A DNA stretch of 64,000 bases, taken from contig JARGXX010000113.1 of NCBI GenBank assembly GCA_030374765.1, positions 744,001-808,000 on the forward strand, read 5' to 3'. Positions within the stretch are counted from its first letter, which is position 1. Each line of letters opens with the position of its first letter. The DNA is from Agarophyton chilense. Its lineage: Eukaryota > Rhodophyta > Florideophyceae > Gracilariales > Gracilariaceae. The position numbers were made by a program, and so were the translations under genes. The notes beneath the pieces were generated by a model. It had not been told where the DNA came from. It made no database searches and saw only the letters and a program-made list of their open reading frames with translations. Positions 3,208 through 57,093 of this stretch are shown piece by piece.

Positions 3208-4911
3208 TCACGGGTTCGGATCACCGCCCCCGGGTTGGTTACCTCCCTGGAGGCGGGTGATCAAGGCCTTGCGCATAGCGGCAACATCGCCACTCGCTGC
3301 GTTGGTCCCCAGCCCCACCTGTCGCAGGAACTGGGAGATCACGGCCGCTTGACCCGCCGGAGCGGAGTTCGCATCGCCTGGGGCGGACGCCCCACCACTT
3401 GGGAGATTCACCGGTGGAACCGGAGGTGGTCCAGCTACCGCGTACTCCGACCCAGCCCCCGCGGGGTTATCCAAACCCGCGTAAGGCGTGGCTGGCGTCC
3501 CCGCGTTAGAGGGACCTCCCGCTTCGGATCCCTTGACCTCCGCCTCGGCGTACGCTTCCCCGTCGTCGGGTTAGTTGTCCACCATTGGATCGTCGCCGTC
3601 GTAGACGTGGTAATATTCATCCGCGTCCACGAAACCGATGGGATGCCCCTCGGGGATATGGCGTGGTGCAAACCGGAGTTCGTTCGCTTCCTCCGCGGAG
3701 ATTTCGTGCCCTTCCCAGGGGTCAAAGTATACGAAATCACCTCCCAAGGGAGTACGCCTTCCCGGTGACAGGTCCTGACCCCGGCTACCCACGGTGCGCC
3801 CGCTTTGTTCAATCGGAACGGCGGTCCAGTCCAACTGGTCGATGTAATCGAGAAGACCCGCCACTTCCCCGGCGTTGGTTACTCCACCAAGTGGGATGCT
3901 CAGGTCCAGGCTGCGAATCGCGGACCTCAACCGGAACGGGAGGAACCACAGTCTGTACTGGTCATACACCTCCCAGAGGAGGAACACCGCCGCGCGGACT
4001 GTCCATTCGGTAATCACCACGGACCACAGTCCGGACTCCGGATCCTCGATGAGGTAAGAACCGTAATACGTGATGACGGGTGGCAGCTCGATGTAACAGC
4101 CCCGGCAGGCCTCGAGGTTCGACCACCACGGTGGAATGAGGACATAGCGACCCCGTCGGTCGGCCACGCGAAGGCGTTCGATCTCCACGTTCTGATACGG
4201 GACCAAATACCCGAATCGGGATCGTGCTCGACACTCGAAGCGGATCAGGGCGAGGAAGTTGGCCCGCGCAAGTCGACGCATGTAGCGGAATTCTGCCAGG
4301 ATAGTCGGTCGCGTCCAGCACATGTCCTCTTGCCGTGCTATTGGGATGCCCCTCCACGATAGTGTTTCCAAACCCGCCAGGCGGTCGACGTAACCAATCT
4401 CACCTTTAGTGCGGTAAAGCCGAATGTCGGTGCCGAGACCATCGGGGATGGGATATTCGAAAGGAGCCCGGCGAAGCCGTTGATGGCCAAGAAGGACGAA
4501 GGCCGCATGAGCGGAAGCCGAGGTTTCACTACCCCGGCGCGCCACAGCGTGAACCGGAACCGCTACGCGGCGTCGCCAATCCAACGAAGTTGTCGCCACG
4601 GCCGGAATATCGCCCGGAAGCATCCCGTTTCCATCGGTGTACATCGCTATGAGCGCTTCGTCTAACACCGCAATCGGGTGGAACCACGGCGCAAGCCGGA
4701 GAACGGACGCCTGATGCCCAGGATGGCGCCCGACAAGCATGTCGTATGGCGGCCACCCTCTCGAGGGGAGCATTTTGTACGGAGCAGCAGCCGCGTTCGG
4801 GATATGAATCTGCGGCGCAGCCGATGACGCGCTTTGCGGAAGCGGAGCGGACTGCAAGCCGGAGAAGTACCCCGCAGGGAGACGGTTGGGTTGATTGTTT
4901 TGGTTGCTCAT
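3208..4911 (-). pseudogene. Element A antisense ORF (conserved protein of unknown function)
   Basis: A long frame on the strand opposite to pol begins with MSNQNNQPNRLP at 4911 and covers most of the interval down to about 3208. I chose the start at 4911 because element B's frame also begins MSN and because the upstream extension is not conserved; the frame itself stays open back to 5145. Shared motifs with elements B and D are LRAEFRxLR-like, RSRxGYLVPYQ, IPPWW, GCYIELPP, LLWEVYDQY, LDLSIPLG, GGDFVYFDPW, and near the C-terminus ISQFLRQVGL. The protein is rich in Trp, Tyr, Arg and Pro. I see no signal peptide, membrane segment, zinc knuckle or catalytic motif. I cannot assign a function. It runs tail-to-tail with pol and its start faces the 3' LTR 270 bases away. 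About one break is visible. Confidence 0.8.
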
Positions 4912-5167
4912 CGGTGAGCGAAGAGGCCGGATGACCGGAAGAGGAGACCGGCGAAGCGAAAGACGATGCCGAGGAATCGGAGGAATGGCACGCAAGGATG
5001 CGGATTCGGTTGAGATGCAACGTTGAGAGCGGTTGTTGCCAGGAGACTGGAGTTTTGCCACACTGCGTTTGTTGGCATCGGATGAAGTGGATCCCAGCGA
5101 GCTGGTTGCACTCTTATGCATTCGTCTCGGCGCGTCGCCCACCATTGCGGATGTCGTACTCGCGCCT

Positions 5168-5180
5168 CAGGAGGGGGATA
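5168..5180 (+). other. Element A polypurine tract
   Basis: The run CAGGAGGGGGATA sits directly before TGAAGTGCAAC, the first bases of the LTR. Polypurine tracts prime plus-strand DNA synthesis in LTR elements. Equivalent purine tracts ending GATA|TG occur in elements B and C1/C2, which fixes the LTR boundary here. Confidence 0.75.
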
Positions 5181-5974
5181 TGAAGTGCAACCCTCGTGAG
5201 GGCCGTTTTCCAGGACTTGGTTGTTTTTCCGCCTCGGGCGATACTTGTGAGAGCTATGAGTAATACCGCTACTAGCGGGCTGGCGTAGCCAGGTGTATAC
5301 GCGTTGTACGCAAAGTGCACCGGCGGCCGTGCGCCGTGGCCCCGATTCGGGTGTGACTTACCCACGTGTACCACGGGTGGCCCAGGACAGGTTGGCACAG
5401 CATAGCTGGATATTTCTCTATTTATTTAGCTTTATTACACTAGGTTAGGGAGCTCTTTACAGTATTCTACACTATATAGTGCCAGGGCGATCTCGCCCTG
5501 ACACTCAGTAAACCTCCCCAACCAGGGTTCTTGGCTCTAAGTCTTTTTCCGCTTTCGCGAGTCTTCCACACTCTACGGAGGTGAAGCTGCGTTACTAACG
5601 GTAGATTTATCCACCCTGCGTCAACAGGAGACTCACCGCTGTTAGCGTGTATATCTTTCATACCCCTGCCGTGTTCTCGCCCCAGTATTGGGTTTGCTAC
5701 ATATTTCTTTTGGCTCTCGTGGCCCATGCCCCCGATCGCCCCCACTGGGTGGTCCCCCCTTTATCACTTGCCCACTCCCGTGGAATACAGCTCATACCTG
5801 GTCTGCTCCCTTCTAGCATCCCGCACTCTCCCCGCTTGGCGTGCCGGTGAACCTCGGCCTTACACCCCGACTTAGTCGTGTTCACTCCGGAGAGGCTCCG
5901 TCGCCGTGCTACCCTCCTTGGAGGAAGACTCGGATATCTTCGTGTGTTTCCGCCGCCTTTGGCGTTGCACTGCA
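5181..5974 (+). repeat. Element A 3' LTR (794 bp)
   Basis: The LTR starts TGAAGTGCAAC after the polypurine tract and ends GTTGCACTGCA. The two ends form an 11-base imperfect inverted repeat with the standard TG...CA termini. Its middle resembles the solo LTRs at 30499-31328 and (reverse strand) 35729-36640, for example around CCCAGTATTGGGTTTG and the TTGGCTCT stretch. The right flank is unrelated (a copia scrap), so the element ends here. Confidence 0.85.
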
Positions 5975-6208: not shown

Positions 6209-6775
6209 AGGCCAAAGATATTAGTAGTAAGCTATCTGGGGGTAGTAGCAGACATTTGCGATAGAGTTCGGACTGCCGAAGTGGTGCTTGCAGCGAAGGG
6301 AGAAGGGGTGGGTGGTATAGCTACAACACCAGAAAGCTCTAAGTGGGTTGTATGGTCACTACTCGCCAGCGAGAGTGAAAAGTGGTACTGAAGAACGTAG
6401 ATGAAACGTTGGAAACGAGATGGCTTGAGTAATAGTTGTGGGCTAACTCTCTATAATGGCTCGTTTGGATCTCCGCCTAAAGAAGCCTTAGCGAGGAACT
6501 GAACAGTCATGTTACCCATGTTGTCTCCTTCATATGGAGTAGGCGCTCATCTCTGGTACACTATATACTCTGTACCAAGGTGAGTGCTCAAGTATTACAC
6601 AAATAGTACCCAGTGAACGGCCTGTTATCCAGACCTCTGTGTGGGCATTGGCCGTAGTGGACTTATAACTATAAAAAGTAGTAAAATACGACAGGTAGAT
6701 CTCCATTTCATGTGTCCCTGGCAATATGGCTTTCCGCTAAGAATAGTGGCAAATGCGCGCGCGCCGAGGCCTGCC
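6209..6775 (-). repeat. Solo LTR of the element D type
   Basis: About 560 bases match the 3' LTR of element D (54578-55105) along their length and in the same orientation. Shared blocks include GTTCGGACTGCCGA, AGCTACAACACCAG, ACTCGCCAGCGAG, CTGGTACACTATATACT and TAGTAAAA. No gag or pol sequence adjoins it, so it is a solo LTR left by LTR-LTR recombination. Boundaries are approximate because both ends have drifted, and I find no clear target duplication. Confidence 0.75.
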
Positions 6776-11149: not shown

Positions 11150-11200
11150 AGAGAAAAGACAGGGACTTTGTTATTCCATTAAAAACTGCACAGGTGTCTG
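11150..11200 (-). other. Leader-like remnant outside the left LTR of element B
   Basis: On the minus strand the bases just outside element B's left LTR align without gaps to the leader just inside its right LTR. About 22 of 31 compared bases agree, including the TGGAATA block. A normal insertion would show unrelated flanking DNA with a short target duplication here. The match suggests this is a leftover leader of a second, tandem copy. It is short, so chance similarity cannot be excluded. Confidence 0.4.
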
Positions 11201-11953
11201 TGCAGTGGGTATCCACAGAAACATTCGCGAAGGGCGGGCGTTGCCTTGCGGGCGACGGTTCTTAGATAAGAAGAGAGTGTGCGGAAAGCAACCAGGTGTG
11301 CCTGAAAAATGGGAATAATACGTGTATTCAAGAGGCGGATGTCCAGATACGGCGGTACGTAATGCACACGAGATCGGCTCAAAACCCCTTTTGATAACAC
11401 AAATAACCAGGTAACAGTAGAGAAAACAACAAAGAAACAACACACACACACACACACACACAGAAAGCTGTAGAAAAAGGGCGCTAAATACGCAACAGTA
11501 GGGGGTATCCTCGAAACAAGAGCTATAGCTCAGAACGGTTAAGAACTGATACTATAGGTGCCCCTTCGTGGTGAACCACTTTAGGATTTCTAGGGCTCAC
11601 CAAGATGGTGTTATGGTTGGTTGTTCTTTGGCCTCCTGCCGTCCTCACCGGGGCCTTGCGCCCTTTAATGAGCCAAGAGGCAAAGAAAGTACTGTACAGT
11701 AATGCATAAACGTGGCGTGCTACTACACAATTATCTAAATAATACCAAATAAAACATTTGTTGATGGCCCCTTACAGTGTACACTAAAGACAGTCCTTCG
11801 TAATTAAATTTCTCCTGTCCAAACCTTTCCATGAAGTAATTGTTCTCATAACTTCTCGTAATCGAGTATAGCCCAAACAATAGCTTATGAATGCCGTATC
11901 GCGACTTCGTAGTATTTCGAACGGTCGAACTCAGGTCCATCCAGAATGCTACA
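11201..11953 (-). repeat. Element B 3' LTR (753 bp)
   Basis: A direct repeat of 21438-22185. On + it starts TGCAGTGGGTATCC and ends CCAGAATGCTACA, so in element orientation it has TG...CA ends. It contains a (CA)n microsatellite near 11440-11461 that is slightly longer than in the partner LTR. It is not visibly similar to the A, C or D LTRs apart from general layout. Confidence 0.93.
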
Positions 11954-12132: not shown

Positions 12133-13695
12133 ATGAGCAACTTTTCGTCTTACGTGATCAATTCACCTACGTCCTATGAAGATCTCGACAACCCTCCGTT
12201 TCAGCAGACTTCTGCACCGCCTAGAGGTTCCGCTCCAATCTCCTGAACTGCCCCTTTCCCACAAACGGCTTCCATTCCTGGTCCTGCATATCTTTCCTCC
12301 ACAGCAGCTGTTCTGCAACCTGCGTCCTCCTCCGTATACGCGTACTTCGTCGGCCGAAACCCCCTGCAGCACTCTGCATTATACGCCCGAGGGCCTTGGT
12401 TTTTCCCCCCGGCGGTCCGCGACAAAGCTCTGATGAATCAGTATGTGGTCGCCGGTCACCTTCCCGATGGTCTCCCATGGCATGGGTTGTTTACAACAGA
12501 TTGGCCGAGCCATTGCGCTCTTCCAAAAAATGCGATCAGTCGCTTCGGAAACGAGAGCTTGCTCGATGCGCGCGAACGATTCACCCGTCTGGTGTACCAG
12601 CGATTACGCTGCATTATCGGCTCGGTGACTCTCAACAAGGATTGGCAATTTGATACCTGGTGCGCCAGAACAAATGACGAGGCCTACTCTTATGTCGAGA
12701 ACCTAGCGCCTTTGGATGTCCATAGGTGGCGCGGTGTTCGTGGAGTATCCAACGTGGCCCTCTGTTCCGACAGTCCTCAATTACGCGCTGAATTCCGCTA
12801 TCTCCGTAAACAGAATAATCACTATTGGGAATTCCCCAGGTGGGAATGCCATACCAGATCTCGGTTGGGATACTTGGTTCCATACCAGATGCTCGAAATA
12901 GACCGAATTCGGTACAACTCGCGCGTCCGTCGCTATGTCCCGATTCCTCCATACTGGCATGAGATCGAGAGTCCTCATGGCTGTCCGGTGGAGCTCCCTC
13001 CTTCAATCAACTACGTAGGTTCCTTACTCGCAAATGCTCCGTTTTTAGGTTCTTGGGTAGTCGTCTACAGTGAATTCATCGCGAAGATGGCCCTGGTCAT
13101 CCTTTGGGATGTGTACGACAAATATCGGTTGTAGTATATGGGCACGATAGAGTGACAACTTGCGAGAGAACTCGATCTTTCGCTCGTCCTGGGCTCACGT
13201 GCCAATCACAAAGAATTTCTGCGCCTGATGAATGCCATTGATCAGATTGACTGGACCCTTTTTCCTTCTGAACAGCAGGCTAGAAGACGTCTTCTTCGCG
13301 ACTATTCACCCGGAAGAACCGGTCCCGGTGGTGACTTCGTCTGGTACAACCCCTGGACTAACCAGCATATCGACGGCGAACACGCCAAAGTTCTGCGGGA
13401 AACTCCGCGAGCAATGCCTCCAACCCAGCCGACTGGTTACATAAACGAGCCAACTGCTCAAGTAGACGCACTCGATGACGAGATGCACGAAATCGAGTAC
13501 GACGAAGAGCCAGAGGAGGTCATCCTCGAGGATCCCGCTTTGGGTGAGAATGACGGCATAGAGCCAGTGGTCCATACAGCGATGCAGAGCGCTATACTTG
13601 AGCCTGTTCGACCGACAGTGGTTTTCCACGACGCCAAGCTTGGCAATCTGAGGCAGTTCCTCGAAGACGCTGGGATTCTTCCCCACCTTGTTTAA
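12133..13695 (+). pseudogene. Element B antisense ORF (conserved protein of unknown function)
   Basis: On the strand opposite to pol, a frame starts at MSNFSS (12133), 180 bases inside the 3' LTR, and ends at 13695. It can be recognised along its length by motifs shared with elements A and D: LRAEFRYLRKQ, a YWEFPRWE block, RSRLGYLVPYQM, EIDRIR, IPPYW, GCPVELPP, LLWD-like ILWDVYDKY, LDLSLVLGSR, GGDFVWYNPW, PRAMPP, and the C-terminal LRQFLEDAG. The region after the PW motif is acidic (DDEMHEIEYDEEPEEV). The protein has no recognisable catalytic or nucleic-acid-binding motif, signal peptide or membrane segment. It converges on the chromodomain end of pol about 265 bases away. The frame is broken, with about two or three breaks. 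Confidence 0.8.
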
Positions 13696-13959: not shown

Positions 13960-15110
13960 TCAGATTCGATCAGGCTCTCCCAACACAACCAAACCGACGA
14001 GAGCGTCATCAATACTGTCTGGGACATCCAGTTTAGCACGTTGGCAGTACGCGAGCACGTGTGATCGTGGTCTATTGCGTATGGGCTCCCATGTATCGTC
14101 TTCGGGCTGATACCCATACCAACGCACTTTAAGCAGTACACTGTTGTCCTTTTCGTACCATCCGTGATATAGAATGCATTCGATGATGTATTCCATCTCC
14201 TCGGTTGCGGACTCCTCAGTTAGGGGAACACTCCTGTCAACAGGTTCCGTAGCGTCCGCTGTAGCTTTCGGTATCGCGTCGTCACGTTCTGTCGTCTCAT
14301 CCACTTCCGGGGTTCTCAAAGCCAGTCGTCTGGTTTCCCTATGTCTTTCCAGTCTGGCCGGTGCTTCCAACTTCCTTCTCGGTTCTTCCGATCCTTGCGG
14401 CTAAAACGCGCCTACAGTTGCCACCATACGCCTTAGGCTTTCCCCGTTGGGCTTTTTCTCTTCTTGAGACCTGCTGCGCTCCTCAGGGAAAGTTACGCTC
14501 TTCAATCCGTTTAGCGTAATTGGGTTGCGGATCTCAGCTTCGGTTCCTTCTGATTCTACGCCAAATGGCGATTCTGTTCTGTCATCAGGACCCCCTGTAC
14601 CGCCTTCAGGACTTCTGATACGTGAGGTTCCATCCTCAATTTCTTTCGCGTCCACCGCGTGGTCTGAGGGAGAGACTGCAGTTTGCAGCTCGTTGACAGT
14701 GCGGATCGCCGTGTCTCCTCTAACAGCTACAGTGGGAGCTATGATTATGTCATGGGCGGATGCGCCGTGTGTCGCAGAACTGTTGTCCAGCCCTATACGT
14801 CGGATTTCCGAATTCCTTTCACCACGTGGCAGTTTTGGAATTAATCTGCCCTGCGGCATTATGTCCGCAAGCTCCTGCACAACTAGTGGCTGTGGTGGCT
14901 CCTGCACCTCAATATCTCCACTTGTGGATTTCTCTCTATGTACTTCAGCTTCTCGATCTGGCGCAACAACTACTCGATCGCGAGAAATGCGCTCCACCTC
15001 TGTACCTCTCCGTAATACCACGATATATTCGTCGAATTCGACAACTTCATGCGGTCCTGTAGCGATCGGCGCAAACTCATGACGGCGTTTCCGTTCCTTG
15101 TCCTCTCCGG
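13960..15110 (-). pseudogene. Element B linker and chromodomain
   Basis: The 14401-15021 frame (ISRDRVVVAPDREAEV at its start) is the integrase C-terminal linker, equivalent to ISRDRVVLAPP in element A. The 13960-14370 frame ends in a chromodomain: EYIIECILYH, VLLKVRWYGYQPEDDTWEP, RPRSHVLAYCQ. The tryptophan and aromatic cage positions expected of the fold are present. The linker is rich in Thr, Glu, Arg and Pro and is probably disordered. Confidence 0.8.
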
Positions 15111-15273: not shown

Positions 15274-16119
15274 CTAGCGTAAGTGAAACTGAGCCGGCGT
15301 CGGCATTGACGCTTCTTCGGTTCTGTCTGAATCTACCTTGATTGGAAAAGCCGTTGGTCGGCGAGATATTATCAATTCAAAGGATGTTAGCTTCGTCGTC
15401 GTATGCACTTGCGTATTGTACGCGTAGCAAAGCGTGTCTGTATACAGACCCCAATCTTTCAGGTGCTCTCCGATGTAGTGCCGAATTGCGGCGAGTAGTG
15501 TACAGTTGTACCGTTCCACCTGCCCGTTACATGGCGGATGATACGTCTTGGTGAACACGTTCCTAACTCCAAGTATCCTGCATACATCTTGAAAGAAGTT
15601 TGCAACGAATTGCTTGCCATTATCTGAGAGCAGAGTATCCGGTGGTCCGTAGTAATAAATCCAATGTTAGATAAACGTTCGTGCTATCACGGAAGTAGTA
15701 ATTCGTTTCAGCGTAACAGTCTTAGCCAGCTTAGAGAAGCGATCAGTTATTACCAAAAGGTATCTATTTCCCCGCTTCGAGCGGATCAATTCCCAAAGTA
15801 TGTCAATACTGATATACTGTTGAGCTCCGATTGATGGGAACAGCTTCAGTGGCTTCTTCTTTTTCCAGAGCTTCACTCTATTCCTCGCGCAAGTTACGCA
15901 CATTTTAGCTGTCGCATGACAATCCATTGCCAAAGTTGACCAATAAAAGTCCCTTCTGAGGATTAGATACAGCTTCGTACCTCCTGGATGACCCGACATT
16001 TGCGAATAATGGGCCAAATGCAGTATTCTGCTCTTAAGAGCGTGTGGTATCACGATTTGCTCATACGATTCAACAGTTCGAACAAATATTCCTCGATCGT
16101 CGAGACGAAAAGGCAACAC
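15274..16119 (-). pseudogene. Element B integrase
   Basis: The zinc-binding domain is visible as HLAHYSQMSGHPGG followed by CVTCARNRVK. The core follows, with its first Asp in SIDILWEL, and continues with TYHPPCNGQVERYN, which holds the catalytic Glu, and AYNTQVH. The order and motifs match the integrases of elements A and D. It is part of the broken pol polyprotein. Confidence 0.82.
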
Positions 16120-18846: not shown

Positions 18847-21016
18847 TTAATTTCCCGATAACGCGGGTTTCTCCCTCGCCACATCGGCGTTGCTTTGTAC
18901 TTTTGGGGCTGAACCCTGTGATATTTCAGAATTCTGAGCTTTTGCGTGAGTTTTGCGTACTGTATCCGCAAATCCCCAAGCTTTGGCCTTCCAATATGAT
19001 TGTCCCGGTACACAGTTTCGTTCTTGTTCCGGGAGAGCTTCATAATTCGAGACAACTCGATGTACCTGTGTAAAGGGCGAAGTGCACTCTGATGACAAAT
19101 GATGTCTTCCATAGCACCCATAACATATCAGGCCGTCCCTGTTCAACCTCAGCTGTGGCTGTTCCATGCCACGGCTATGCACCCAAACCAGGCTTCTGAG
19201 AAGTAAATTCACCCGCTGGCGGGACCGTTGGACTCCTTCTGTAAGGATAATGGCGTGGCTCCATAGCCACTATATCATCTTCCACATGGGAATCAGTTGA
19301 CGGCAAATCCGTAGTAGGCACTGACCCCTCTGGATCATTCAGATAACTAACTGCGTCTTCTCCAGTATAGCTGGCATCATGAGGCGTAAACGTCGAAACT
19401 CGTGATTCCTCTGGCGACTCCAGATGCAAAAACTTGCCTCGCTTGATACGGTGTTTTACATCCCTGTTAGCAACGGGGTAGGTCCCCAGACGACGTGTTA
19501 CACCCCCGCGACGAGCGCGAACGGCTTCACCTTCAGCCTGTGCATACTGCACTAGTTACAGAAAACTGATTCTCGAGTGCTCCTCCCGATGACAGGCTAC
19601 CAATGACTTGATACTCGGATCGAGTCCATCGAAAAAAAGTGTCATCATCTCGTCCGTAGAATGGACATCTCCACAGCGTGTAGCTGCATTAGTCAGTCTT
19701 GAACTGTAATCAACCTCCTTTTCTTCAGGCTTCTGGGTAATATCTCTGAGATTCAGAATAGCTTCACGAATCCCATTATAGGTTGCGTATCTACGCAGAA
19801 AGTACTACACGGTTTCGGCACAACTGGTGACCCCACCTTCATCGACGGTAAGTGAACCACTCATGGCACGGTATTGCTCCAATGCAAATCCTACCAATAG
19901 GTGTGGAAGTGCCACGAATGCTTGAGCTTCACTCATCCCCAGCGTGGCGGCTTCGACTACAAAGCGATTGAGAAATTCAAATATAAGAATGGGATCCTTC
20001 CCAGAAAAAGTAAGACCATCGAGGCCAATCTTTAAACGGTTAATGTGATCTCTCACTTTGGCTGTCTCGCGACCTGTACGCTTCCCCTTTCGGACCATGA
20101 GCTGATATGCACGATAAATCGTAATCTTCCTTTAAAGCAGGTTCGTACACGAAAGCGGTTTCAGATTCTTGGAGGGCGGTCCCTTCTTGCGGGACAGTAG
20201 TGAGCTACCAATTCTTTTCTTTCTCGAACGGAGAGTGTCCTCCTCGCTCGAAGTATCCTCAGAAGATGAACTTCCATTCTCGGGATTTTCCGTATCCGAA
20301 CTATCGGAGTCCGTATAATCGGAATCATCTCCGTCTCCATCGGTGTCATGTCTTCTTGCGAGTTTTCTCGATTTAGAGCGTATTGTAGATAAAATCTGTA
20401 CCTTCAACTTCTTCGAATATTTCTTGCGCGACCGCGTATCAGCAACGATGGGTCCTACTTCCTGTACTTCCGGGTGCGGAATTTGCAACGGTGCCTTCAC
20501 CACAGTCTCCAATCGCTCTAAGCGAGGGTTTACCCGTGAGAGGGCCTCCTCAACAGTAACGGGTATAGCTGGTAAGGCCCCTGTGGCATTTCCTTGCTCT
20601 TCTAGCAATTGAGTTAGATCTTCTCGGTTTGTCCGAACACTCTCGCCAATCCGATTCGTGTCTAGATTTCGACTCTCCAGAGCGGTGTGCTCTCTTCTTA
20701 ACGTCTCTAATGACGGTTTTAACAAGTTAACTTTACCTTTCATCTCCTCCAGACGGAACTTCTGCGTCGCAGATTCCGCACGGAGTTGCTTTAATTCAGC
20801 TTGCAAGTCTACACCTTCCATGATATCACGTTTAGATGAGGTAGTAGACTCGAGAGCGATCGTCGTCGGAACCTCCGAAGGTGCAACTGCGCCTCCTGTC
20901 GATTTCGACTTCTTCTTCACCTGACGATATAGGCGGTTGCCAGCCTCTGTAGAGGTGGCTAAGCGGGGGGCCGCGGACTCACATCTATCCGAATCCGGTC
21001 GGCTTCTTGTCCGCAT
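18847..21016 (-). pseudogene. Element B gag region
   Basis: The region begins at 21016 with MRTRSRPDSDR and an Arg/Ser/Asp/Glu-rich leader (GDDSDYTDSDSSDTENP). Next comes a capsid-like helical part, including GRETAKVRDHINRLKIGLDG and FLNRFVVEAATLGMSEAQA. At the end is a zinc knuckle, CYGCYGRHHLSSEC, of the CCHC type (CX2CX4HX4C) typical of retroelement nucleocapsids. In the family Gag forms the particle that packages element RNA. The capsid-like part matches element D's gag closely. It is broken by about three breaks. Confidence 0.8.
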
Positions 21017-21437
21017 GACGGCAACTTATCACTGGAAATCCAGATAACAAATTCGAACGACGCAAACACAATTTCTTAATGAAAACAGTATATATATTGC
21101 GATCGATACAACCAATATCGACAACGATAAAAACTTCTAGAAAATAGAACAAAAAAACAGTGAAGATTCACAACTAATATTCGGGTTGACCGACGAACGT
21201 GGCGAACGGTTAGATCTGGTTCCAAATGTCTTCTGGAAATGTAGATTCCGTGATGACGGTTCAAGCTTCACTTCACTGATTTCAGTTCAACGCACGAAAA
21301 TCAAACGAGGATCATTCGAACGTGCGAAACACGGTATATCCTGTCCAAGCGACCATAATTCCACACACAGGTGTACTTCTTTCTAAGTCGGGAGACCATT
21401 TATGTGGTATTCCACTGACGACTGTAGAGGTCTCGGT
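21017..21437 (-). other. Element B leader between 5' LTR and gag
   Basis: This stretch lies between the gag start and the 5' LTR. A primer binding site should sit at its right edge. The sequence there (minus strand CCGAGACCTCTACAGTCG) does not begin with the usual TGG directly at the LTR; a TGGAATACCA block occurs about 22 bases further in. I cannot name the primer tRNA. Confidence 0.5.
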
Positions 21438-22185
21438 GCAGTGGGTATCCACAGAAATATCCGCGAAGGGCGGGCGTTGCCTTGCGGGCGACGGTTCTTA
21501 GATAAGAAGAGAGTGTGCGGAAATCAACCAGGTGTGCCTGAAAAATGGGAATAATACGTGTATTCAAGAGGCGGATGTCCAGATACGGCGGTACGTAATG
21601 CACACGAGATCGGCTCAAAAACCCTTTTGATAACACAAATAACCAGGTAACAGTAAAGAAAACAACAAAGAAACAACACACACACACACACACAGAAAGC
21701 TGTAGAAAAAGGGCGCTAGATACGCAACAGTAGGGGGTATTCTCGAAACAAGAGCTATAGCTCAGAACGGTTAAGAACTGATACTATAGGTGCCCCTTCG
21801 TGGTGAACCACTTTAGGATTTCTAGGGCTCACCAAGATGGTGTTATGGTTGGTTGTTCTTTGGCCTCCTGCTGTCCTCACCGGGGCCTTGCGCCCTTTAA
21901 TGAGCCAAGAGGCAAAGAAAGCACTGTACAGTAATGCATAAACGTGGCGTGCTACTACACAATTATCTAAATAATACCAAATAAAACATTTGTTGATGGC
22001 ACCTTACAGTGTACACTAAAGACAGTCCTTCCTAATTAAATTTCTCTTATCCAAACCTTTCCATGAAGTAATTGTTCTCATAACTTCTCGTAATCGAGTA
22101 TAGCCCAAGTAATAGCTTATGAATGCCGTATCGCGAATTCGTAGTATTTCGAACGGTCGAACTCAGGTCCATCCAGAATGCTACA
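21438..22185 (-). repeat. Element B 5' LTR (748 bp)
   Basis: About 98% identical to 11201-11953 by eye. In element orientation it begins TGTAGCATTCTGG and ends GGATACCCACTGCA. The bases beyond it on + (GGGAG) do not match those before the left LTR (GTCTG), so no target duplication is kept. Confidence 0.93.
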
Positions 22186-25524: not shown

Positions 25525-25679
25525 CCGCGCGCGCGTGCGCGCCGCTGCTGCGCTGCTGACGTGCGCCGCCGCGCCGTCGCGCCGCCCACGGCAAGCACTG
25601 CGCAGCGTGCGCTGCCGCAACAACACTGTCGAGACAAAAGCTGCCCCAAAAGGACGCGCCGCCACTCGTTGCGCTGCCG

Positions 25680-32735: not shown

Positions 32736-33180
32736 TGTAACGCAATGACTGGTTGGTCAGCGTACTGGTCTTGACCGGTGGTAGCGTGGTAGAGCGGGTC
32801 CTAAGGTTCGAATCCTTGACGGCGGCACTCCCAGAGAACTTGGTGCAATGGGCTGGCGTTTACTCGTAGTCCTACAGGTTGGAGCAACGGAAACGATGGC
32901 TTGAAGACCAATTGGTGGGACTAATATACTAAAGGGGGTCATCTAGTATCCTAACAGTGCCTGCCTTTCTCTAAGGGAGAGGCGTCACTCGAGCCAAATA
33001 AATAGTACTGGCGAGGCGCTGGGATCTCCCTGGCACTGTAATGCTAATTTATTACACTGATTAAAAAAAACTAATAATTTACATGAGTCCACCTGAGGTC
33101 GGCCAGTCCACGTGGCGTCTGTAAGATCCCTCAGGGCCCGGCGATTTACACGGCTCAACCGTTATCGTTGCTCCTTCACA
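32736..33180 (-). repeat. Element C1 3' LTR (445 bp)
   Basis: A direct repeat of 43277-43720 and an inverted relative of the C2 LTR at 51474-51918. On + it starts TGTAACGCAATGAC and ends GTTGCTCCTTCACA. The polypurine tract directly adjoins its right edge. It holds a Pol III box A/box B-like motif listed separately. Confidence 0.9.
32774..32827 (+). other. tRNA-like box A/box B motif in C1 3' LTR
   Basis: TAGCGTGGTAGAGCGG resembles a tRNA D-arm (box A), and GGTTCGAATCC is a perfect T-arm box B, about 12 bases apart. The T-arm can fold (TAAGG / CCTTG around TTCGAAT). The anticodon arm is absent and the sequences at the acceptor positions do not pair, so this is not a tRNA gene. It lies antisense to the element and is conserved in all three C-family LTRs. 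Confidence 0.6.
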
Positions 33181-33479: not shown

Positions 33480-35600
33480 TGGGGCCGTCCTTAGTTTCCG
33501 CTCTTCTTTTGGCGACCCTCCGCACTTCATCCACCGTGGTGTACGCCTGTCAGTCCGATCAGGTGAATTCCGTTCGTCTTCTCATCGTGGTACTTTTCCA
33601 TTGGTCGCCTGCGATGCCGAACTCGCCGTTTAAGCCCGTCGGATACGCCGTTCTCCCTCCGGACTATGTCGCTTCGGTCATCTTTCCTATCCATTTTCCG
33701 GCGGACCGGCCTGTGAGGATCGGCACCATGGCTTCGAACAACAAAGCGGGGAGCTTCTCGGGATACTAAGTGTCCTTCGAACGTTCCGGGGATCGCTAAG
33801 ACCATACCGTCAGACGAAACCCGCAGGCAGTGCGTCATGCCATTCTTCCGTCCTCTGTGGAAGAATACCAAAGGTTCTTCCATATGTGTCTTGACGCCCG
33901 CAGGTTCGCGACGATAACCGATTTCCGGAGGGGCAGTAAGAACGCGCGCAGCGTCTCATAGTACAAACGGTGGATACATTGTCCTGTAGATCCGCGTTCG
34001 GCGACGCACTGTCGCACCCTCATCCAGCGCTGCGAGGAGGAAGCCGAGTATCAGTTTAGGGTGAACAAACTGCTTTCGAACCTATATACGGACATCATCT
34101 TGCCTCATGTGAGATTTCCCCCGGCGGGTGACAATATCTTGGCGCTCATGTGCTTTCGACCGCCGTATGAACGCCTGTTCTGGATGTCCAATGGGGTCTA
34201 TTGGAACGAGATGCAGGAGCCCGATGGTCTTTTTCGTCAATCCCTGGGGTTCTTCTTTTGTTGGCACCAGGTGGAGTTTCACGACATGAGCGCAGACAAA
34301 CGTCTTTCGTTATATCTTTCGCTTCCCCACGTAAATGAAAACCAATTAGCCATGTATTGGCGTGTCTCTCCGCTCTTTTGGTTCCCACGCCGTCTGTGGC
34401 GGCGTATCACTCGTCCCAACCTATGGGCGATGACAATGACCGAAGTTCTTGGCAGTCCTGGAAGGTACTCTTCGTTGAGTTCGGCGTGATGTCCCTTCTG
34501 GCCTTCCTGGATACCGCGAAGTAAGGAGTCTGTTGTAATGTCCGTTCGGAGGATTGGAGGGTATGCTACGACGGGAACATACCCGCTCCTCGAGGTCGCC
34601 TAATCCCGCTCCCGGACATCATGGTCCGTTTCCTAAGGAACCTGGGCATCCAAAATATCCTTTGTGGGACCCAGTTCGACACGTCGAGGAGACCGAGGCC
34701 CTTTTGGATCATATCCTACAGGTGGAGTGGGGCAAGAATCCCGGGTTCCTTTGGTATGACTGGGATACCGACTCATTCACGCCGATTCCGCTGCATCCGC
34801 ACGGTCGGGACGACGCTCGTGCCTATCCCGCCAAGCCTTTGAGGTATCAACCATCGAACATCCCGAGGGGTCATGTGCCCGACTATTATCCAAAGGCCAT
34901 TGGTTTCGATCCCCTGTGCTTCGAGCCCGATGTGGAAGCCACGCCATTGGTTCCTGCTGGGATGTCCGATGGAGAATTCGTCGGTGACGATCCCTTCGTC
35001 CTAACCGTAGAGGGCGTTGATCCACCGGTCGAGTCCAGTGTTTTGTTGCCGACCGCTTCCCCTCCTCCAGCTCCTCCGGGCGCTGCTTCTCACGATGAAA
35101 TATCATATGAGCCGACCGTCGCTCAAGTGAACATACCTCCTAGAGAGGTTACTATCGAGGTCAAAAGTCCTGTAGGTGATGCGCTGGCTCAAACGTCCCC
35201 CGGGAGCGTCGACATCGCTCCATCCTCTCCGTTGCCACACTTTCTAGCTTCGTTCACGGCTGCAGCCGCGGATCTCCGTCATGTCTGCCGTACCGTTGGT
35301 ATTAATGCCTCCATGGACATTGCGATAGTCCTGAGGGAAGCCTGCTCGTGGGCGCGTCGCTCGGCGCGCTACACCGCGGTTGTCCTACAGGGTCAAGATC
35401 TGAAGACCGCTATGGTCAATCTCCAGCAGCATAATGCACAACTGATGTCCCAGAGGGATACAGCCGATTTGGATGCCCGGTATGGTCTAAATTTGAGCGC
35501 CCGGAGGCCTCCGATGGTGAAAATAGTTTTTCAGGTTAATCTCTGCCGAAGAAGCGTGCTCGGCTCGCTTGGTCCGGTCCTATTGGTACAGTAGGCTTCT
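33480..35600 (+). pseudogene. Element C1 antisense ORF (diverged member of the same family)
   Basis: On the strand opposite to pol, several open stretches read as a protein shared with element C2: VRFPPAGDNILALMCFRPPY, FWMSNGVYW, EPDGLFRQSLGFFFCWHQV and EMSADKRL-like DMSADKRLSLY. Further on come ALLDHILQVEWG, GFLWYDWD, PSNIPRGHVPDYYPKAIGFD and a C-terminal helical part (VLREACSWARRSARYT). The YW-x-E-M-x-E-P-x-G pattern and the GFLWYDW ... IPRGH ... IGF pattern parallel YWHEIESPHG and GGDFVYFDPW ... IPEGH ... IGF in elements A and B, so I regard the frames as homologous. The position (between LTR and chromodomain, converging on pol) is also the same. Function unknown. It is broken, with about three breaks. 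Confidence 0.72.
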
Positions 35601-43276: not shown

Positions 43277-43720
43277 TGTAACGCAATGACGGTGGGGTCA
43301 GCGTACGGGTCTCCACCGGTGGTATCGTGGTAGAGCGGGTCCTAAGGTTCGAATCCTTGACGGTGGCACTCCCAGAGTACTTGGTGCAATGGGCTGGCGT
43401 TTACTGCGTAGTCCTACAGGTTGGAGCTACGGATACGATGGCTTGAAGACCAATTGGTCGAACTAATGTACCAAAGAGGGTTATTTAGTATCCTAACGGT
43501 GCCTGCCTTACTCAAAGGGAGAAGTGTCACTCGAGCCAAGTGAATAGTACTGGCGAGGCGCTGGGATCTCCCTAGCACTGTAATGCTAATGTATTACACT
43601 AATTGAAATGAAATAATTATCTAAATGAGACTAGCTGAAGTCGCCCAGTCCATGTGTGGCCTGTAAGATATCTCAGGCCGCGGCAGCTTACATGGCCCAT
43701 CCGTTATCGTTGCTGTTTCA
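43277..43720 (-). repeat. Element C1 5' LTR (444 bp)
   Basis: The partner of 32736-33180, about 85-88% identical by eye. On + it starts TGTAACGCAATGAC and ends CGTTGCTGTTTCA. The box A/box B-like motif is at 43315-43368, with box B perfectly kept and box A slightly changed. Confidence 0.88.
43315..43368 (+). other. tRNA-like box A/box B motif in C1 5' LTR
   Basis: The same motif as at 32774-32827. Box B GGTTCGAATCC is intact, and the D-arm-like part reads TATCGTGGTAGAGCGG. It lies antisense to the element, pointing away from its body. Confidence 0.55.
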
Positions 43721-48015: not shown

Positions 48016-48798
48016 AAGTTCAATTTCGACAAAGCCGTTTGGAACACACCGACCTTTGGGAAAGGAGATCTGGTTTACCTGAACCGGCCACCGAAGAACA
48101 GTGAGGAACTCGAGCAAACTACGCGGAAGCTCTTACCCCGCTCTACGGGACCATACAAATTCCTTAAGGCCAATGATCACACCATCACTTTACTCATTGA
48201 CGGCCTACAGGACACTGTGTCTATTGGCCACGTGACACGAGCTCCCAGTTCCTCCGGACCACGAATGTCCCAGCTCCCTGGCCCAACAGAAGCACCACGA
48301 CCTCAGGTCGACACTCAAGTCCCCACACCCACTAAGGCAGTTCCCGAGGACTCGACTAGCCCCACGAACACGATGGTCAATGCCAACTACTATGACCCAT
48401 CGCTCCCAACCGACTCCGATGGATTCGCCCCTCTGGACCACACTCACCTTCTGGAAGATGAAAAGCAACCGGAATATGTGATCGAGCGCATCATCTCCAT
48501 CGGTATGGGAGAAGATGGAACTATGCGCTATCGCGTCCGTTGGTTCGGCTACACACCTGAGGAAGATACTTGGCCAGAGCCTCAAACCATTCCGGCTAAT
48601 TTTATCGCCCGCTATTGGCGCAGAATCAGCCAGTCGGAGCACGGCCCTCAAGAAGGGGCCACCATTGGTCCGAATAATCCCAAACCACCTCCCAAACCGC
48701 CTCCCAAACCGCCTCCCTACACGACGTTTCGCCGGAGCACAACGGCTCGTCGTTGTTCTCGCATCAGGGAACAAATTCAGTCCTTCGGAGACACCTGA
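48016..48798 (+). pseudogene. Element C2 linker and chromodomain
   Basis: The integrase C-terminal module (GDLVYLNRPPKNSEELEQT, then GPYKFLKANDHTITLLIDG) is followed by a Pro/Thr-rich linker. A chromodomain follows: EYVIERIISIG, YRVRWFGYTPEEDTW, TIPANFIARYW. The C-terminal tail contains a (KPPP)n run. It matches C1 at 36896-37471. Confidence 0.83.
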
Positions 48799-48980: not shown

Positions 48981-51282
48981 TCACTGGGGCGGCGCAGGAG
49001 TAACTTCGTCGTCCTCATTGGAACCTGCAGGAGCGAAACCGGAATTGGGATCCCCCGCGGAGCCGACTGGACCACCCGAACCGGCCCCAGCCAGCCAAGC
49101 ACGCTTCTTCGGCGGGGATTTTCCTGAGGAACTATTGTCACCATCGGAAACCTCCCGGTCACTCAAATTGAGACCATATCGAGCATCCAAGTCGGCGGTA
49201 ACTCTCTGGGACATCTCCTACGCATTCTGCTGCAGAATATTGACCATGGCGTTCTCCAGGTCCTGACCCTGTTGGACAACCGGGGTGTAGCGAGCCGAGA
49301 AACGCGCCCAGGAGCATGCTTCCCTCAGGACAGTCGCAATGTCCATCGGGGCCATGATACCAACGTTAAGGCAGACATGACGGAGATCCGCGGCGGCAGC
49401 CGTGACCGAAGCAGGAAAGTGGACCAACGTAGAGGACGGAGCGATGTCGACGCCCCCCGTGCACGTCTGAGGAAGTGCCTCGCCTACAGGACTTTCGGTT
49501 TCGACAGTAACCTGGCCAGGAAGAATAATCACTTGGTCTACGGGCGGTTCATACGAGAGCTCATCGTTAGGAGCAGAGGCCGGAAGAGCTGAAGGAGGAG
49601 AACCGGTCGACAATACAACCGGGGACTCAACCGGAGTATGAACGCCCTCCATGGGTAAGACGAAGGGATGTTCACCAAAGGATTCTCCGTCGGACATACC
49701 AGCAGGAACTGACGGCGCGGCTTCCACATCAGGCTCGAATCAAAGAGGATCGAAACCAATGGCCTTCGGATAATAGTTGGGCACATGACGCCTCGGAATG
49801 TCCGATGGTTGATTCCGCAAGGGGTTGGCGGGATATGCATGGGCGTCTTCCCGACCGTGCGAATGCAACGGAATCTGCGTGAATGAGTCGGCATCCCAGT
49901 CATACATAAGGAACCCAGGAGTTTTGCCCCACTCCACCTGTCGGACATGATCCAAAAGGGCCTCGGTCTCCTCGACGTCTAACTGAGTCCCACGGACGAT
50001 TTTTTGTATGCCCAGGTTCCTTAGGAAGCGGATCATGACGTCCAGGAGTAGGATTAGGCGACCTCGAGGACCGGGTATGTTCTCAACATACCAGACCCTT
50101 CAATCCTCCGAACGGTCATTACCCTGGATTCCGTATTTCGCGGTATCTGGAAAGGCCATAAGAGACATCACGCCGAACTCGACGAATAGCACCTGCCAGG
50201 AAAGCCAAAACCTTTGGTCATGGTCAGCGCCCATGAGTTGGGACGAGTGGTACGCCACCACGCACGGCGTGGGAACCAGAAGGAGCGACGAGACACGCGA
50301 ATACATTGCCCATTGGTTCTCATCCTCCTGGAGTAGGGAACGGTGCAACGGAAGGCGTTTGTCGGCGCTCATTTCGTGGAACTTCACTTGGTGCCAACAA
50401 AACAAGAACCCCAAGGATTGACGCAGACGACCATCGGGCTCATGCATCTCGGTCCAATAGACCCGATTGGACATCCAGAGTAAGTGGTCGTACGGTGGCC
50501 GGAAGCACATAAGCGCCAAGAGGTTGTGACCAGCCGGAGGAAAGCGCACATGAGGTGAGATGAAGTCCGTGCATAGGTCCGAAAAGAGTTTTTTTACCCT
50601 GAACTGGTAGTCGGCTTCTTCCTCGCAACGGACGTACGGCATGTCCGCTTAGACGAGTGTGCGACATCGCGTCGCCGAACGTGGATCCACAGGACAATGC
50701 AAACAACGGTCATACCACGAGACGCTGCGCGCGTTCTTGCTGCCCCTCAAGAAGTCGTGTATTTTGGCAAACCTTCGGGCGTCGAGATAGTTGTGGGAAA
50801 ACCTTTGGTATTCTTCCACTGAGGACGGAAGAACGGCATGACGCACTGCCCGCGGGTTTCTTCCGATGGTATGTTCAAAGCGGTCCCCCGGACGCTCGTA
50901 GGCCACTTGGTATCCCGAGGAGCTCCCCGATGGTTTGTTTGAGATCACGGTACCGCTGGTCTCAAGGTGTTCCGCCAGGAAATAGATGGGAGAGCCGGTG
51001 GAGGCGACATAGTCCGAAGGAAGTACGGCGTATCCGGCGGGCTAATAAGGTGATTTCAGCATCGCGCGCAACCAATGGAAAGGAACCACGAGGAAAAGAC
51101 GAAGTAACGGAGTTGACCCGAACGGACTGACAGGCGTGAATCACGGTGGAAGAAGCGCGGAGGGTTGCCAAGGGAAGAAAGGAGACGAAGGAAGAACCCA
51201 ATGGACCGTCTCGGCAACGCGACGGGATGAATACGCCGGCGATGCACCTATGGCAAGCGCTCACGTCACGTGACATTTTCAA
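48981..51282 (-). pseudogene. Element C2 antisense ORF
   Basis: Open minus-strand stretches (50962-51282, 50649-50948, 50100-50642, 49740-50036, 49218-49727, 48981-49214) carry the same protein as element C1's antisense frame. Shared blocks include VRFPPAGHNLLALMCFRPPY, VYWTEMHEPDGRLRQSLGF, HQVKFHEMSADKRL, ALLDHVRQVEWG, the IPRRHVPNYYPKAIGFDPL block and VLREACSWARFSARYT. The C-terminal end is Ser/Gly/Pro-rich with KSPPKKRAW. It starts near the 3' LTR and converges on the chromodomain end, 183 bases away. Unknown function. Broken, with several breaks. Confidence 0.72.
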
Positions 51283-54577: not shown

Positions 54578-55105
54578 TGTAGTATCCGCTCCAACGGAGA
54601 GATCAGACAACTGCTACAGCGTTCGGACTGCCGATGGGTCGCTTGCGGCGAAGGAAAAGGGGTGGTAGAGCTACAACACCAGCGAGCTGGAAGTGGGGTA
54701 TAAGGCCATTACTCGCCAGCGAGGGTGGACAGTGCAACTGTAGAACGTTCATGGAACGTAGGTACGAGACGGCTCGTGAAGTGGTTGGGGGCTGACTATC
54801 TATTATAGCTTGTCCGTATCTCTGGTTAAGGAATCCTAAGCGAGCAACAGAATAGTCATGATGCCCGTGTTGTCTCCTTTACTTGGAGTCGGCGCTCACC
54901 TCTGGTACACTATATACTGTGTGCCAGGGTGAGTTCCCAAATAATACGCAAATAATACCCAGTGGTCAGCCACTTAGCCAAACCACTGTATGGGTACGGT
55001 CCTTAATGGACGTCTAGCTACAAAGGGTAGTAAAACCAGCCACGTGGATCGCCACTACATGCGCCGTTGCAAGCCAGTCCACTCGTAATACCACGTGTCC
55101 CAACA
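54578..55105 (-). repeat. Element D 3' LTR (about 528 bp)
   Basis: Matched along its length by the solo LTR at 6209-6775. On + it runs from TGTAGTATCCGC to CACGTGTCCCAACA, so in element orientation it starts TGTTGGGACACGTGG. Purine-rich sequence (GCCAGGAGGTAGGGTA on the minus strand) lies at the expected polypurine tract position just inside. The outer edge is approximate. Confidence 0.75.
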
Positions 55106-55124
55106 CTGTACCCTACCTCCTGGC
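55106..55124 (-). other. Element D putative polypurine tract
   Basis: The minus strand reads GCCAGGAGGTAGGGTA three bases before the LTR start. It is less regular than in A, B and C but sits at the same place. Confidence 0.5.
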
Positions 55125-55176
55125 ATCCTACGCGGTGTGCCGTTTCATATCACAAGTTTGATGACATCACTCACTT

Positions 55177-57093
55177 ATGAGTTCCAACCGCGACTTCGCG
55201 AAAAACCAACCCATCGGATTCCCCGACATAGTAGAATACTACATACACCCCTCGTTAAGCGCGAACCATGGGGGACGCAAGAAGCGTTTATACGCAGTCA
55301 GACCGGTGTTCCGGGTACTCTTCGTCATCACGATTTCCTTGCCGCCCGACCAACTCTTACAGTTCTCAACAGCATTCTGTTCCTCACCGCTCTTCAGCTC
55401 GATCTCTCGCGATGGATGCGAACGCCGGGTCCAACTTGTTTCAGCCCTTCTCTGAGGATGTGCCTTCTGGGGCTCCGTCAAACACTGCTGGTTCTGCGTC
55501 GCAGCCTATTGCTCAACTCGGTCCATACCGTTCGTTCCCTATCCCGTACTCCGGATTCCGGTCGGTACCGTTACCTCAGCCAACCATGGCTCCGATGCCG
55601 AACGCGGCTTACGTCGCCTCTGCGGGTGTGATTCGAGCTTCTTCTCGTCGTTCTCAGCGGAGCTACCCCCACACTGCGGATTTCTATGGACGAGATCCTC
55701 TCGTCAACGTTGAACTTTTCGCGCAAGCGCCCTGGTTTGATCCAGTTGCTATCCGCGATGACGCGTTTATACAACAGTATGTACACGGTGGGTACTTCCC
55801 TGACGGTATTCTGGAACACGCGATTTATAGCGACGACTGGGCGAGCCATATTGCTTTGCCAGACAACGCGATTGCGCGATATTCAACGGAAACCTTGTCC
55901 GAAGCCCGTACGCGGTTCACCAAGCGGATTTACTAGCGTCTTCACCGATTCATCAGTACGGTTCTCCTCCCGCAGGACTGGGAACTAGATACCTGGAAAG
56001 CCCGTACCGACGGTGAAGGTTACTCGTATATCGAGACACTCGTTGAAGTCGATGTTTGCGGTTGGCGCGGTGTGCGCGGTGTGCGTGATGCAGATCTCTG
56101 CTTTCAGCAACCTCTTCTCCGTGCGGAGTTCCGCTTCCTCCGCAAGCGTGACATTCCCTATTGGGATTATCCCCGTTGGGAACGTCGTACACGATCACGT
56201 TTGGGCTATTTGGTGCCGTATCAAATGATCGAGATTGACCGCATCCGGCGGAACGCGCGCTTCGGGCGCTACATCTGTATTCCGGAGCATTGGGCGGCGA
56301 TCGAGAGTCCTCGTGGTTGCCCTGGGGAGCTTTCACTGGCGATTTCCTACATCGGGTCCGCGTTTGTTAACGACCCGTTCTCGGGATGTTGGACGGTGGT
56401 TTATACCGAGTTTATCGCCAAGATGGCCGTCTTCCTCCTGTGGGATGCTTATGATACCTTTATGGTTTGGTACATGTCGCCCACAGCTCGAAAGTATGCG
56501 AGAGAACTCGATCTTTCCCTTGTCCTGGGATCCCGTGCGAACCATGCCGACTTCCTCCATCTTGTGGATTTGATCGACAGTGTCGGTTGGTCTGGAGTGC
56601 CAGCTGATCAATCCGCTCGCGGAACCCGTGCAAGATACTATGACCATTCTTGTGTACGAACAGCAAGTGCTGGAGATTTCGTTTGGTGCGACCCCTGGAC
56701 ACGCCATTTGATCACCTCCGAGCAGGCTCGCTTTCTTCGGGAGAACCCGCGTGACATGCCACCGAACCAGCTTACTGGATACGTGTACGGTGTTACTCCA
56801 TCCGAGAACGGAGAGGAACCGTATGAGGAAGCGCCGGGAGCTGAGGCTGAACTCGGTTACAAGGACGACCCAGAGCTGGCAGGCGTAGCGACTTCCGTCG
56901 ATCAATCCGCAGCGGCGGGAGTTGCTCAAGAGAACTTTCATAGGTTTACCCAAAACCGAGTGCAATGCCGGTCGAAGATCCAGGCTTAGATCCGCTGAGG
57001 CAGTTCCTCTTATATGCGGGCTTTCCCGTGGACCAAGATGAGGGTGATCGCGCACAGCTTCTTGCGAACCTGCGTGCTCGCACGTCTCTTTGA
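55177..57093 (+). pseudogene. Element D antisense ORF (best-kept copy of its C-terminal half)
   Basis: On the strand opposite to pol, a frame begins MSSNRDFAKNQP at 55177, only 72 bases from the LTR, and ends at 57093. The 56072-56989 part is one open stretch of 305 residues: LRAEFRFLRKRD, IPYWDYPRWERRTRSRLGY, LVPYQMIEIDRIRRNARF, IPEHW, ESPRGCPGELS, LLWDAYD, ARELDLSLVLGSRANH, GDFVWCDPWTR and ENPRDMPPNQLTGYV. An acidic stretch follows. The C-terminal end carries LRQFLLYAGFP, as in A and B. No known domain, membrane segment or signal peptide is visible. Function unknown. It converges on the chromodomain end of pol about 330 bases away. About three breaks. Confidence 0.82.

What the first reader, a model, noticed from the sequence alone, without database searches (positions are those of the whole stretch)
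3208..57093. A conserved antisense protein family carried by all five chromoviruses
Elements A (3208-4911), B (12133-13695), C1 (33480-35600), C2 (48981-51282) and D (55177-57093) each have a long frame on the strand opposite to pol, always between the chromodomain and the 3' LTR. It does not overlap pol, so it is not a shadow of pol coding. A, B and D share many motifs (RSRLGYLVPYQ, EIDRIR, ELPP, GDFVW.PW, PR.MPP, LRQFL..AG). Antisense ORFs are known in plant Tat-lineage elements, but I recognise no relation. A captured accessory gene kept across several subfamilies would be new to me for chromoviruses.
Basis: partly seen in the sequence, partly recalled or inferred. Interest (0 to 1): 0.92.

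Follow-up and report, generated by a model that had tools for sequence, protein, structure and literature searches.

The report
Antisense gene in seaweed retrotransposons
Several families of chromodomain retrotransposons in a red seaweed carry an extra, lysine-poor protein gene running backwards between pol and the 3' end, kept by natural selection and matching no protein family we could find, so these elements probably need it for something beyond the standard retrotransposon genes.

Summary
All five elements carry, tail-to-tail with pol, open stretches of one antisense protein family. A, B and D are clear relatives (38-41% to A; B-D 56%). C1/C2 are a remote branch seen by profile comparison (best hhalign 92%, E 8e-7; 0 of 100 shuffles reach it). 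The genome, probably Gracilaria (Agarophyton) chilensis, holds dozens of copies per subfamily, many A and some D copies with full 611-652 aa frames. A further family picked by its reverse transcriptase alone has the gene in the same place. Between subfamilies the frame is under purifying selection; between young copies private changes look neutral, as expected after insertion. Eight unnamed database proteins are relatives. No Pfam family reaches its cut-off, and none is the Transposase_28 of plant antisense ORFs. Antisense extra genes here are known in plants and fungal Boty, so the kind is known; protein family and host group look new. An unexpected feature is lysine poverty: 0 in 567 residues in 8 of 30 A copies, and lower K/(K+R) in all five subfamilies measured than in any of 13 gag-pol stretches. 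Most likely it is a trans-acting accessory protein expressed from the 3'-LTR side; avoidance of ubiquitination is a bold, testable reading.

The parts
3574..4911 (-). A: antisense ORF, conserved core from the likely ATG to an in-frame stop (upstream the frame stays open to 5166)
   Evidence: the lysine-poor stretch begins at this ATG
3208..3570 (-). A: C-terminal continuation after the stop; in other copies one 652-aa frame
2831..2956 (+). A: chromodomain at the end of pol (PF00385, E 3e-4, below curated cut-off)
12247..13131 (+). B: antisense ORF, first open stretch (295 aa)
13156..13695 (+). B: antisense ORF, second open stretch with C-terminal motif
14074..14190 (-). B: chromodomain at the end of pol (PF00385, E 1.4e-6, above cut-off), tail-to-tail with the antisense ORF
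11169..11953 (-). B: 3' LTR (TG...CA; purine-rich tract just inside)
21405..22185 (-). B: 5' LTR, 96.3% identical to the 3' LTR
20135..21025 (-). B: open frame just inside the 5' LTR, gag by position only (no Pfam match)
33962..34489 (+). C1: antisense ORF, upstream open stretch
34539..35591 (+). C1: antisense ORF, main open stretch (351 aa)
32736..33172 (-). C1: 3' LTR
43277..43714 (-). C1: 5' LTR (87.5% identical to its 3' LTR)
48475..48624 (+). C2: chromodomain at the end of pol (PF00385, E 1.5e-7, above cut-off)
49221..49739 (-). C2: antisense ORF, C-terminal stretch
49740..50099 (-). C2: antisense ORF, middle stretch
50103..50648 (-). C2: antisense ORF, stretch of the conserved core
50649..51041 (-). 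C2: antisense ORF, N-terminal stretch
   Evidence: by eye against L069
51488..51918 (+). C2: 3' LTR (85% to the C1 5' LTR)
55259..55933 (+). D: antisense ORF, N-terminal open stretch
55937..56986 (+). D: antisense ORF, main open stretch (350 aa)
57506..57646 (-). D: chromodomain at the end of pol (PF00385, E 2.6e-8, above cut-off)
62669..63328 (-). D: sense-strand gag (Pfam Retrotrans_gag, E 8e-5, just under cut-off), so the antisense ORF is not the missing gag

Best explanation
It is a real accessory gene of a lineage of Ty3/gypsy chromoviruses in a Gracilaria-type red alga. It lies antisense to gag-pol, between the chromodomain end of pol and the 3' LTR, and converges with pol. SHOWN: frame, place, strand, homology across subfamilies, many open copies, protein-level constraint between subfamilies, low lysine. 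INFERRED: an antisense transcript starts in or just inside the 3' LTR (in B the open frames begin about 0.2-0.3 kb from it) and is translated into a soluble protein of about 560-660 residues. That protein acts in trans for the element: regulating expression or silencing, or helping particles or cDNA, as proposed for antisense genes of plant elements. Its low lysine content would make it a poor ubiquitin target and so long-lived. The precise biochemical step is unknown; a regulator or anti-silencing factor is my first choice.
For: Homology of A, B, D and remotely C. At least 78 A-type places (24 with no stop and an open frame of 640 aa or more, counted), 116 D (14 with no stop and 611 aa or more, counted), 33 B at 72% identity or more counting the window's own and 116 C; the lists are capped. 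Purifying selection: D-B omega 0.12 and 0.22 where the fit is finite, codon-position differences about 0.28-0.39/0.24-0.31/0.57-0.61; D-A 0.47/0.41/0.70; C pairs omega 0.29-0.50; likelihood ratios against omega 1 are 44-647 for the five A/B/D pairs (three of them boundary fits) and 9-33 for C. Tail-to-tail with the chromodomain in 30 of 30 and 29 of 30 loci. Blind test: the RT-selected family F (L008) has it too (L071: 43% to A over 320 aa with a 338-aa open stretch, and a chromodomain of E 4e-9 on the other strand). Relatives in the protein database. Lysine.
Against: No expression, promoter, protein or phenotype data. Within subfamilies shared changes show only weak constraint (A 50 N/27 S, ratio 0.76; D 127/71, ratio 0.72), not significantly different from private ones (p 0.60, 0.057). 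Only 2 of the 33 B-type places have no stop in the match (counted), so B looks dead. Lysine is below nucleotide expectation clearly only in A (0 vs 10.9); D 8 vs 11.0, E 9 vs 13.3, C 12 vs 14.8, B 6 vs 5.8 and 3 vs 5.7 are not striking by that test. The one copy of subfamily E examined showed no chromodomain beside the gene (0 of 1). A-F identity is high in integrase (0.74) but low in the antisense protein (0.38), so the two are not simply co-inherited at one rate.
Confidence: 0.8

Rival explanations
1. The useful product is the antisense RNA, not a protein: convergent transcription makes double-stranded RNA that tunes or silences the element.
For: Convergent arrangement in 30 of 30 A and 29 of 30 D loci, 370-651 bases between the matched parts of gene and chromodomain. 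dsRNA regulation is proposed for such genes in the plant review (PMC7264820, parts 1-2 of 3 read).
Against: An RNA-only role does not predict a protein conserved with third-position excess between subfamilies, nor the same motifs in the outside relatives.
Confidence: 0.1
2. The gene is a relic: once a captured host or viral gene, now carried passively by recent bursts.
For: Private changes within A and D are near neutral (0.87 and 1.00) with 15 and 32 new stops. The window copies are broken, and only 2 of 33 B-type places are free of stops in the match.
Against: Neutral decay after insertion is expected of any element gene. 24 of 78 A-type and 14 of 116 D-type places stay open. Subfamilies with saturated synonymous sites still share the protein, and family F, chosen by RT, has it.
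Confidence: 0.05
3. It is an envelope-like or second structural protein expressed from the other strand.
For: Position between pol and 3' LTR is that of env-like genes (PMC7264820). In A and C one 19-residue stretch is fairly hydrophobic (1.70 and 1.82).
Against: Opposite strand; hydrophobic maximum only 1.42 in D and 1.19 in E, so no membrane segment common to the subfamilies; a sense-strand gag is present in D.
Confidence: 0.05

Closest known systems
Antisense additional ORFs (aORF-3R) of plant Ty3/gypsy elements: Grande gene23, RIRE2, Retand ORF4 (PMC7264820 parts 1-2 of 3 read; PMC11963269 passages read)
   Same: [quoted passage not shown]
   Different: Retand is a non-chromovirus lineage (PMC11963269; that Grande and RIRE2 belong to the same non-chromovirus group is recall). 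97% of Retand clusters have Transposase_28 (PF04195), which no member here matches; host here is a red alga
brtn, antisense gene of Boty in Botrytis cinerea (Zhao et al. 2011; title seen in the reference list of PMC8365987, paper itself not read)
   Same: [quoted passage not shown] that Boty is a Ty3/gypsy chromovirus is recall (one search found no paper)
   Different: Protein sequences could not be compared here; fungal host
Antisense gene HBZ of HTLV-1 (named in passages of PMC11963269; details recalled)
   Same: Antisense gene of a retrovirus whose product acts in the nucleus
   Different: HBZ is a basic-zipper protein (recall); no Pfam family reached its cut-off here
Lysine-desert proteins (PMC10169902, passages read)
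   Same: Long lysine-free sequence; viral examples are mentioned there
   Different: Link to the ubiquitin system untested here

Membership tests
Antisense aORF-3R genes of LTR retrotransposons (a kind, not a sequence family) | Between pol and 3' LTR, antisense to gag-pol | tested here: met
   B and C1 within defined LTRs; chromodomain on the opposite strand beyond the 3' end in 30/30 A and 29/30 D loci, F 1/1, E 0/1
Antisense aORF-3R genes of LTR retrotransposons (a kind, not a sequence family) | In most copies of the family | not tested
   loci were picked by the antisense gene itself; how many pol copies lack it was not counted. The one copy picked by RT has it
Antisense aORF-3R genes of LTR retrotransposons (a kind, not a sequence family) | Conserved about as well as other element proteins | tested here: inconclusive
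   B-D 0.56 (antisense) vs 0.63 (integrase), A-D 0.35 vs 0.54, but A-F 0.38 vs 0.74
Antisense aORF-3R genes of LTR retrotransposons (a kind, not a sequence family) | Transcribed antisense | not testable with these tools
   no RNA data
Transposase_28 / TRP28 (PF04195) | Match to the Pfam model | tested here: not met
   no PF04195 match (10 window stretches, E up to 1; 13 members, E up to 0.1; 7 antisense proteins, E up to 0.1)
Chromovirus (host element) | Ty3/gypsy RT and integrase followed by a chromodomain | tested here: met
   RVT_1 in B and D, rve in A and D, rve in C1 and C2, Chromo above cut-off in B, C2, D and F, below it in A; C1 chromodomain only partial
Env-like gene | Sense orientation and membrane segment | tested here: not met
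   antisense; no membrane segment common to the subfamilies
Lysine-desert protein | Long stretch without lysine beyond composition | tested here: met
   A only: 0 of 567 in 8 of 30 copies, at most 4; expected 10.9. Other subfamilies are lysine-poor but not free
Lysine-desert protein | Escapes ubiquitination | not testable with these tools
   needs an experiment

The most novel reading that the evidence does not exclude
A retrotransposon-encoded, lysine-depleted antisense protein that works at the host ubiquitin system: it escapes degradation, or recruits a ubiquitin ligase against a host silencing factor as lentiviral accessory proteins do, and has been kept across red-algal chromovirus lineages as their counter-defence gene.
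Probability: 0.12. Interest if true: 0.88.

Novelty: new variant of a known kind. Interest (0 to 1): 0.62.

Why it matters
Antisense extra genes of LTR retrotransposons are known in a few plant and fungal elements, and by the review read here none has a settled function. This family has many open copies in one small genome, spread over at least five subfamilies with outside relatives, and one subfamily is lysine-free. That makes the question of what antisense retrotransposon genes are for open to experiment in a cultured seaweed. It also suggests, without proving, that such genes arose or were acquired more than once, since the sequence reaches the cut-off of no Pfam model, the plant domain included.

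Tried and rejected
Shadow of pol coding: rejected, the frames do not overlap pol. Antisense ORF as the missing gag: rejected for D, which has a sense gag match, and unlikely for B (unmatched frame at the gag position). Similarity by recent duplication: rejected between subfamilies, true within them. C unrelated: rejected by profile comparison with shuffled, reversed and unrelated-protein controls; earlier, smaller profiles gave weaker values. Known family: no Pfam match at the curated cut-off (weak hits up to E 1 looked like chance) and no credible PDB sequence match; one Fab chain at E 0.44 is taken as chance. IMG/VR scan with P0002: one pattern match, no relative. Equal-rate co-inheritance of antisense gene and integrase: not supported for A-F. 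The ML omega fit ran to infinite divergence in three of ten pairs (D-B first stretch, D-A, A-B); for those I rely on codon-position differences only.

Literature (ten searches). The search for an antisense ORF in algal LTR elements listed one review that by its title is off the subject, and the last one listed five papers, none with such a gene in title or abstract start; neither listing was opened further. Of PMC12502185 I saw passages, which did not bear on this. Subscription papers are mostly absent, so absence from print is not shown.

Left out of the K/(K+R) comparison: P0008 (fragment), P0009-P0011 (C-type pieces), L071 (fetched later), the A piece upstream of the ATG, frame 16053-16913 (0.34) and the 25514-28270 gene (0.29); the two B stretches were added as counts. 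In one search codons with more than one difference and codons read in under 80% of copies were dropped. A loci are the 30 best of 78 A-type places listed (81 rows with three of another subfamily); D loci the 30 best of 116. Each set includes the window's own copy.
Full report
What was checked. The window lies in a 79.8 Mb, 135-contig assembly. The three database relatives of the C-type protein are predictions named 'Agarophyton chilense' (60-79% identical). Size and contig number are close to the published Gracilaria chilensis assembly (76.07 Mb, 138 contigs, 66.2% repeats; PMC10388701, passages read), so the host is most likely that seaweed (the two names as synonyms are recall) or a close relative; this is an inference.

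Anatomy. The elements are Ty3/gypsy chromoviruses. RVT_1 is found in B and D, integrase domains in A and D, a Retrotrans_gag match in D, and integrase in C1 and C2. A chromodomain ends pol in B, C2 and D above Pfam's cut-off and in A below it; in C1 only a partial likeness was seen. B is bounded by LTRs of about 785 bp, 96.3% identical (11169-11953, 21405-22185), with TG...CA ends and a purine-rich tract inside the 3' LTR. The ten bases flanking B show no target-site repeat at its edges. C1 has LTRs 87.5% identical. The antisense stretches lie between the pol end and the 3' LTR.

Homology. A-B 38% over 302 aa, A-D 41% over 285 aa, D-B 56%. C is remote: pairwise E 2e-4. Profile comparisons gave probability 77 and 61 with small profiles and 91.7 (E 7.7e-7, 153 aligned columns) with the fullest ones. 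Against that score of 61.2, column-shuffled C profiles reach at most 21.9 (0 of 100), the reversed profile 26.9, six other proteins of the window 12-18, and one C sequence alone 42.8 (probability 51). So one family spans all five elements, with C at its edge.

Copies. A-type: 81 places listed, 78 of them A-type and three at 55-58% identity. Of the 78, 24 have no stop in the match and an open frame of 640 aa or more (counted). Of 30 fetched A loci, 16 carry an unbroken frame of 651-681 aa. D: 116 places, 14 with no stop and 611 aa or more (counted); of 30 fetched, 4 have the unbroken 611-aa frame. B-type: 33 places at 72% identity or more counting the window's own, only 2 without a stop in the match. 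C: 116 places. Lists are capped, so these are lower bounds. With a chromodomain query the pol end lies tail-to-tail with the gene in 30 of 30 A loci and 29 of 30 D loci. As a blind test I took family F, found through its RT alone (L008), and read the stretch beyond its pol. The antisense gene is there: 43% identical to A over 320 aa, with a 338-aa open stretch and more matching sequence upstream, facing a chromodomain that passes Pfam's cut-off. One test went the other way: the one copy of the E subfamily examined (L070) has a 658-aa antisense frame, but no chromodomain was found in the adjacent stretch.

Selection. Between subfamilies third codon positions differ much more than first and second (D-A 0.47/0.41/0.70; D-B 0.32/0.25/0.61). 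Finite omega estimates are 0.12 (D-B second stretch), 0.22 (window D vs B) and 0.29-0.50 among C copies, against 0.05 for D-A integrase and 0.10 for B-D RT. Synonymous sites are saturated between subfamilies and three of ten fits ran to the boundary, so the numbers show direction rather than size. Between copies of one subfamily, private changes are near neutral (A 351 N/165 S, 0.87, 15 stops; D 564/227, 1.00, 32 stops). Shared changes look somewhat more constrained (A 50/27, 0.76, 0 stops; D 127/71, 0.72, 4 stops), but the difference is not significant (p 0.60 and 0.057). This is the pattern of element genes: selection in the replicating lineage, decay after insertion.

Relatives. Six database proteins with L010 as query and two more with a profile, the six 27-45% identical in the first alignment, all without precomputed Pfam domains. 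No Pfam family reached its cut-off and no credible PDB sequence was found.

Lysine. The A-type protein from its likely ATG has no lysine and 49 arginines in 567 residues in L010. Over 30 copies the count is 0 in 8 and at most 4. Of 19 codon sites with any lysine, 14 are private to one copy, four are in two copies and one is shared by 13. From codon-position base frequencies 10.9 are expected. In the same frame upstream of the ATG most copies have 3-4 lysines in 85 codons, which supports that ATG. The other subfamilies have 1.4-2.0% lysine, but there the nucleotide expectation is only slightly higher (D 8 vs 11.0, E 9 vs 13.3, C 12 vs 14.8; B second stretch 3 vs 5.7) or equal (B first stretch 6 vs 5.8). 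K/(K+R) is 0.00-0.20 in five subfamilies (A to E), 0.09-0.29 in seven of the database relatives, and 0.25-0.52 in 13 gag-pol stretches (Mann-Whitney p 2e-4 for the five). The higher G+C of the antisense region (0.53-0.61, against 0.46-0.62 in the gag-pol stretches) may explain part of this. Lysine-free viral proteins, with avoidance of ubiquitin as a speculation, are mentioned in PMC10169902 (passages read).

Mechanism. Shown: a conserved coding gene in a fixed place. Inferred: expression from the 3'-LTR side and a trans-acting accessory function. For the plant counterparts a nuclear or regulatory role has been proposed without proof, and maize Grande's gene is reported there to be transcribed from a promoter upstream of it (PMC7264820). 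I think a regulator or anti-silencing factor most likely; lysine avoidance would fit a long-lived protein acting near the ubiquitin system, but this is the bold reading.

Evolution. By best single integrase matches A is closest to F (0.74) and B to D (0.63; D-F is 0.61). In the antisense protein B is closest to D (0.56) and A to E (0.57), while A-F is only 0.38. Either the gene evolves fast in one line or the 3' part has been exchanged between lineages.

Place among known things. [quoted passage not shown] Retand, PMC11963269, passages read; Boty brtn, known to me only from that review and from a passage and the reference list of PMC8365987). This family differs in host group and sequence, is not Transposase_28, and has a lysine-free branch. 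I therefore rate it a new variant of a known kind.

Noticed in passing
25514-28270 (+): A 919-aa open frame ending in a WW domain (Pfam E 5e-15), with a weak C2_GDE1 match; probably a host gene between elements.
   Followed up: no
6249-6686 and 54604-55035: 77% identical direct repeat of about 440 bp near elements A and D, in an orientation that does not fit its being the same part of those two elements.
   Followed up: no
L008/L071 (family F) against A: Integrase 74% identical but antisense protein only 38%: possible exchange of the 3' part between chromovirus lineages, or fast evolution.
   Followed up: partly
B element edges 11168/11169 and 22185/22186: No target-site duplication is visible although both LTRs are well preserved.
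   Followed up: no
G000 contigs C34, C114, C115: Four places give identical scores for the same match, suggesting duplicated contig ends or very recent copies.
   Followed up: no
44857-45924 (-): A 356-aa open frame near the 5' part of C2, opposite to its pol, without a Pfam match.
   Followed up: no
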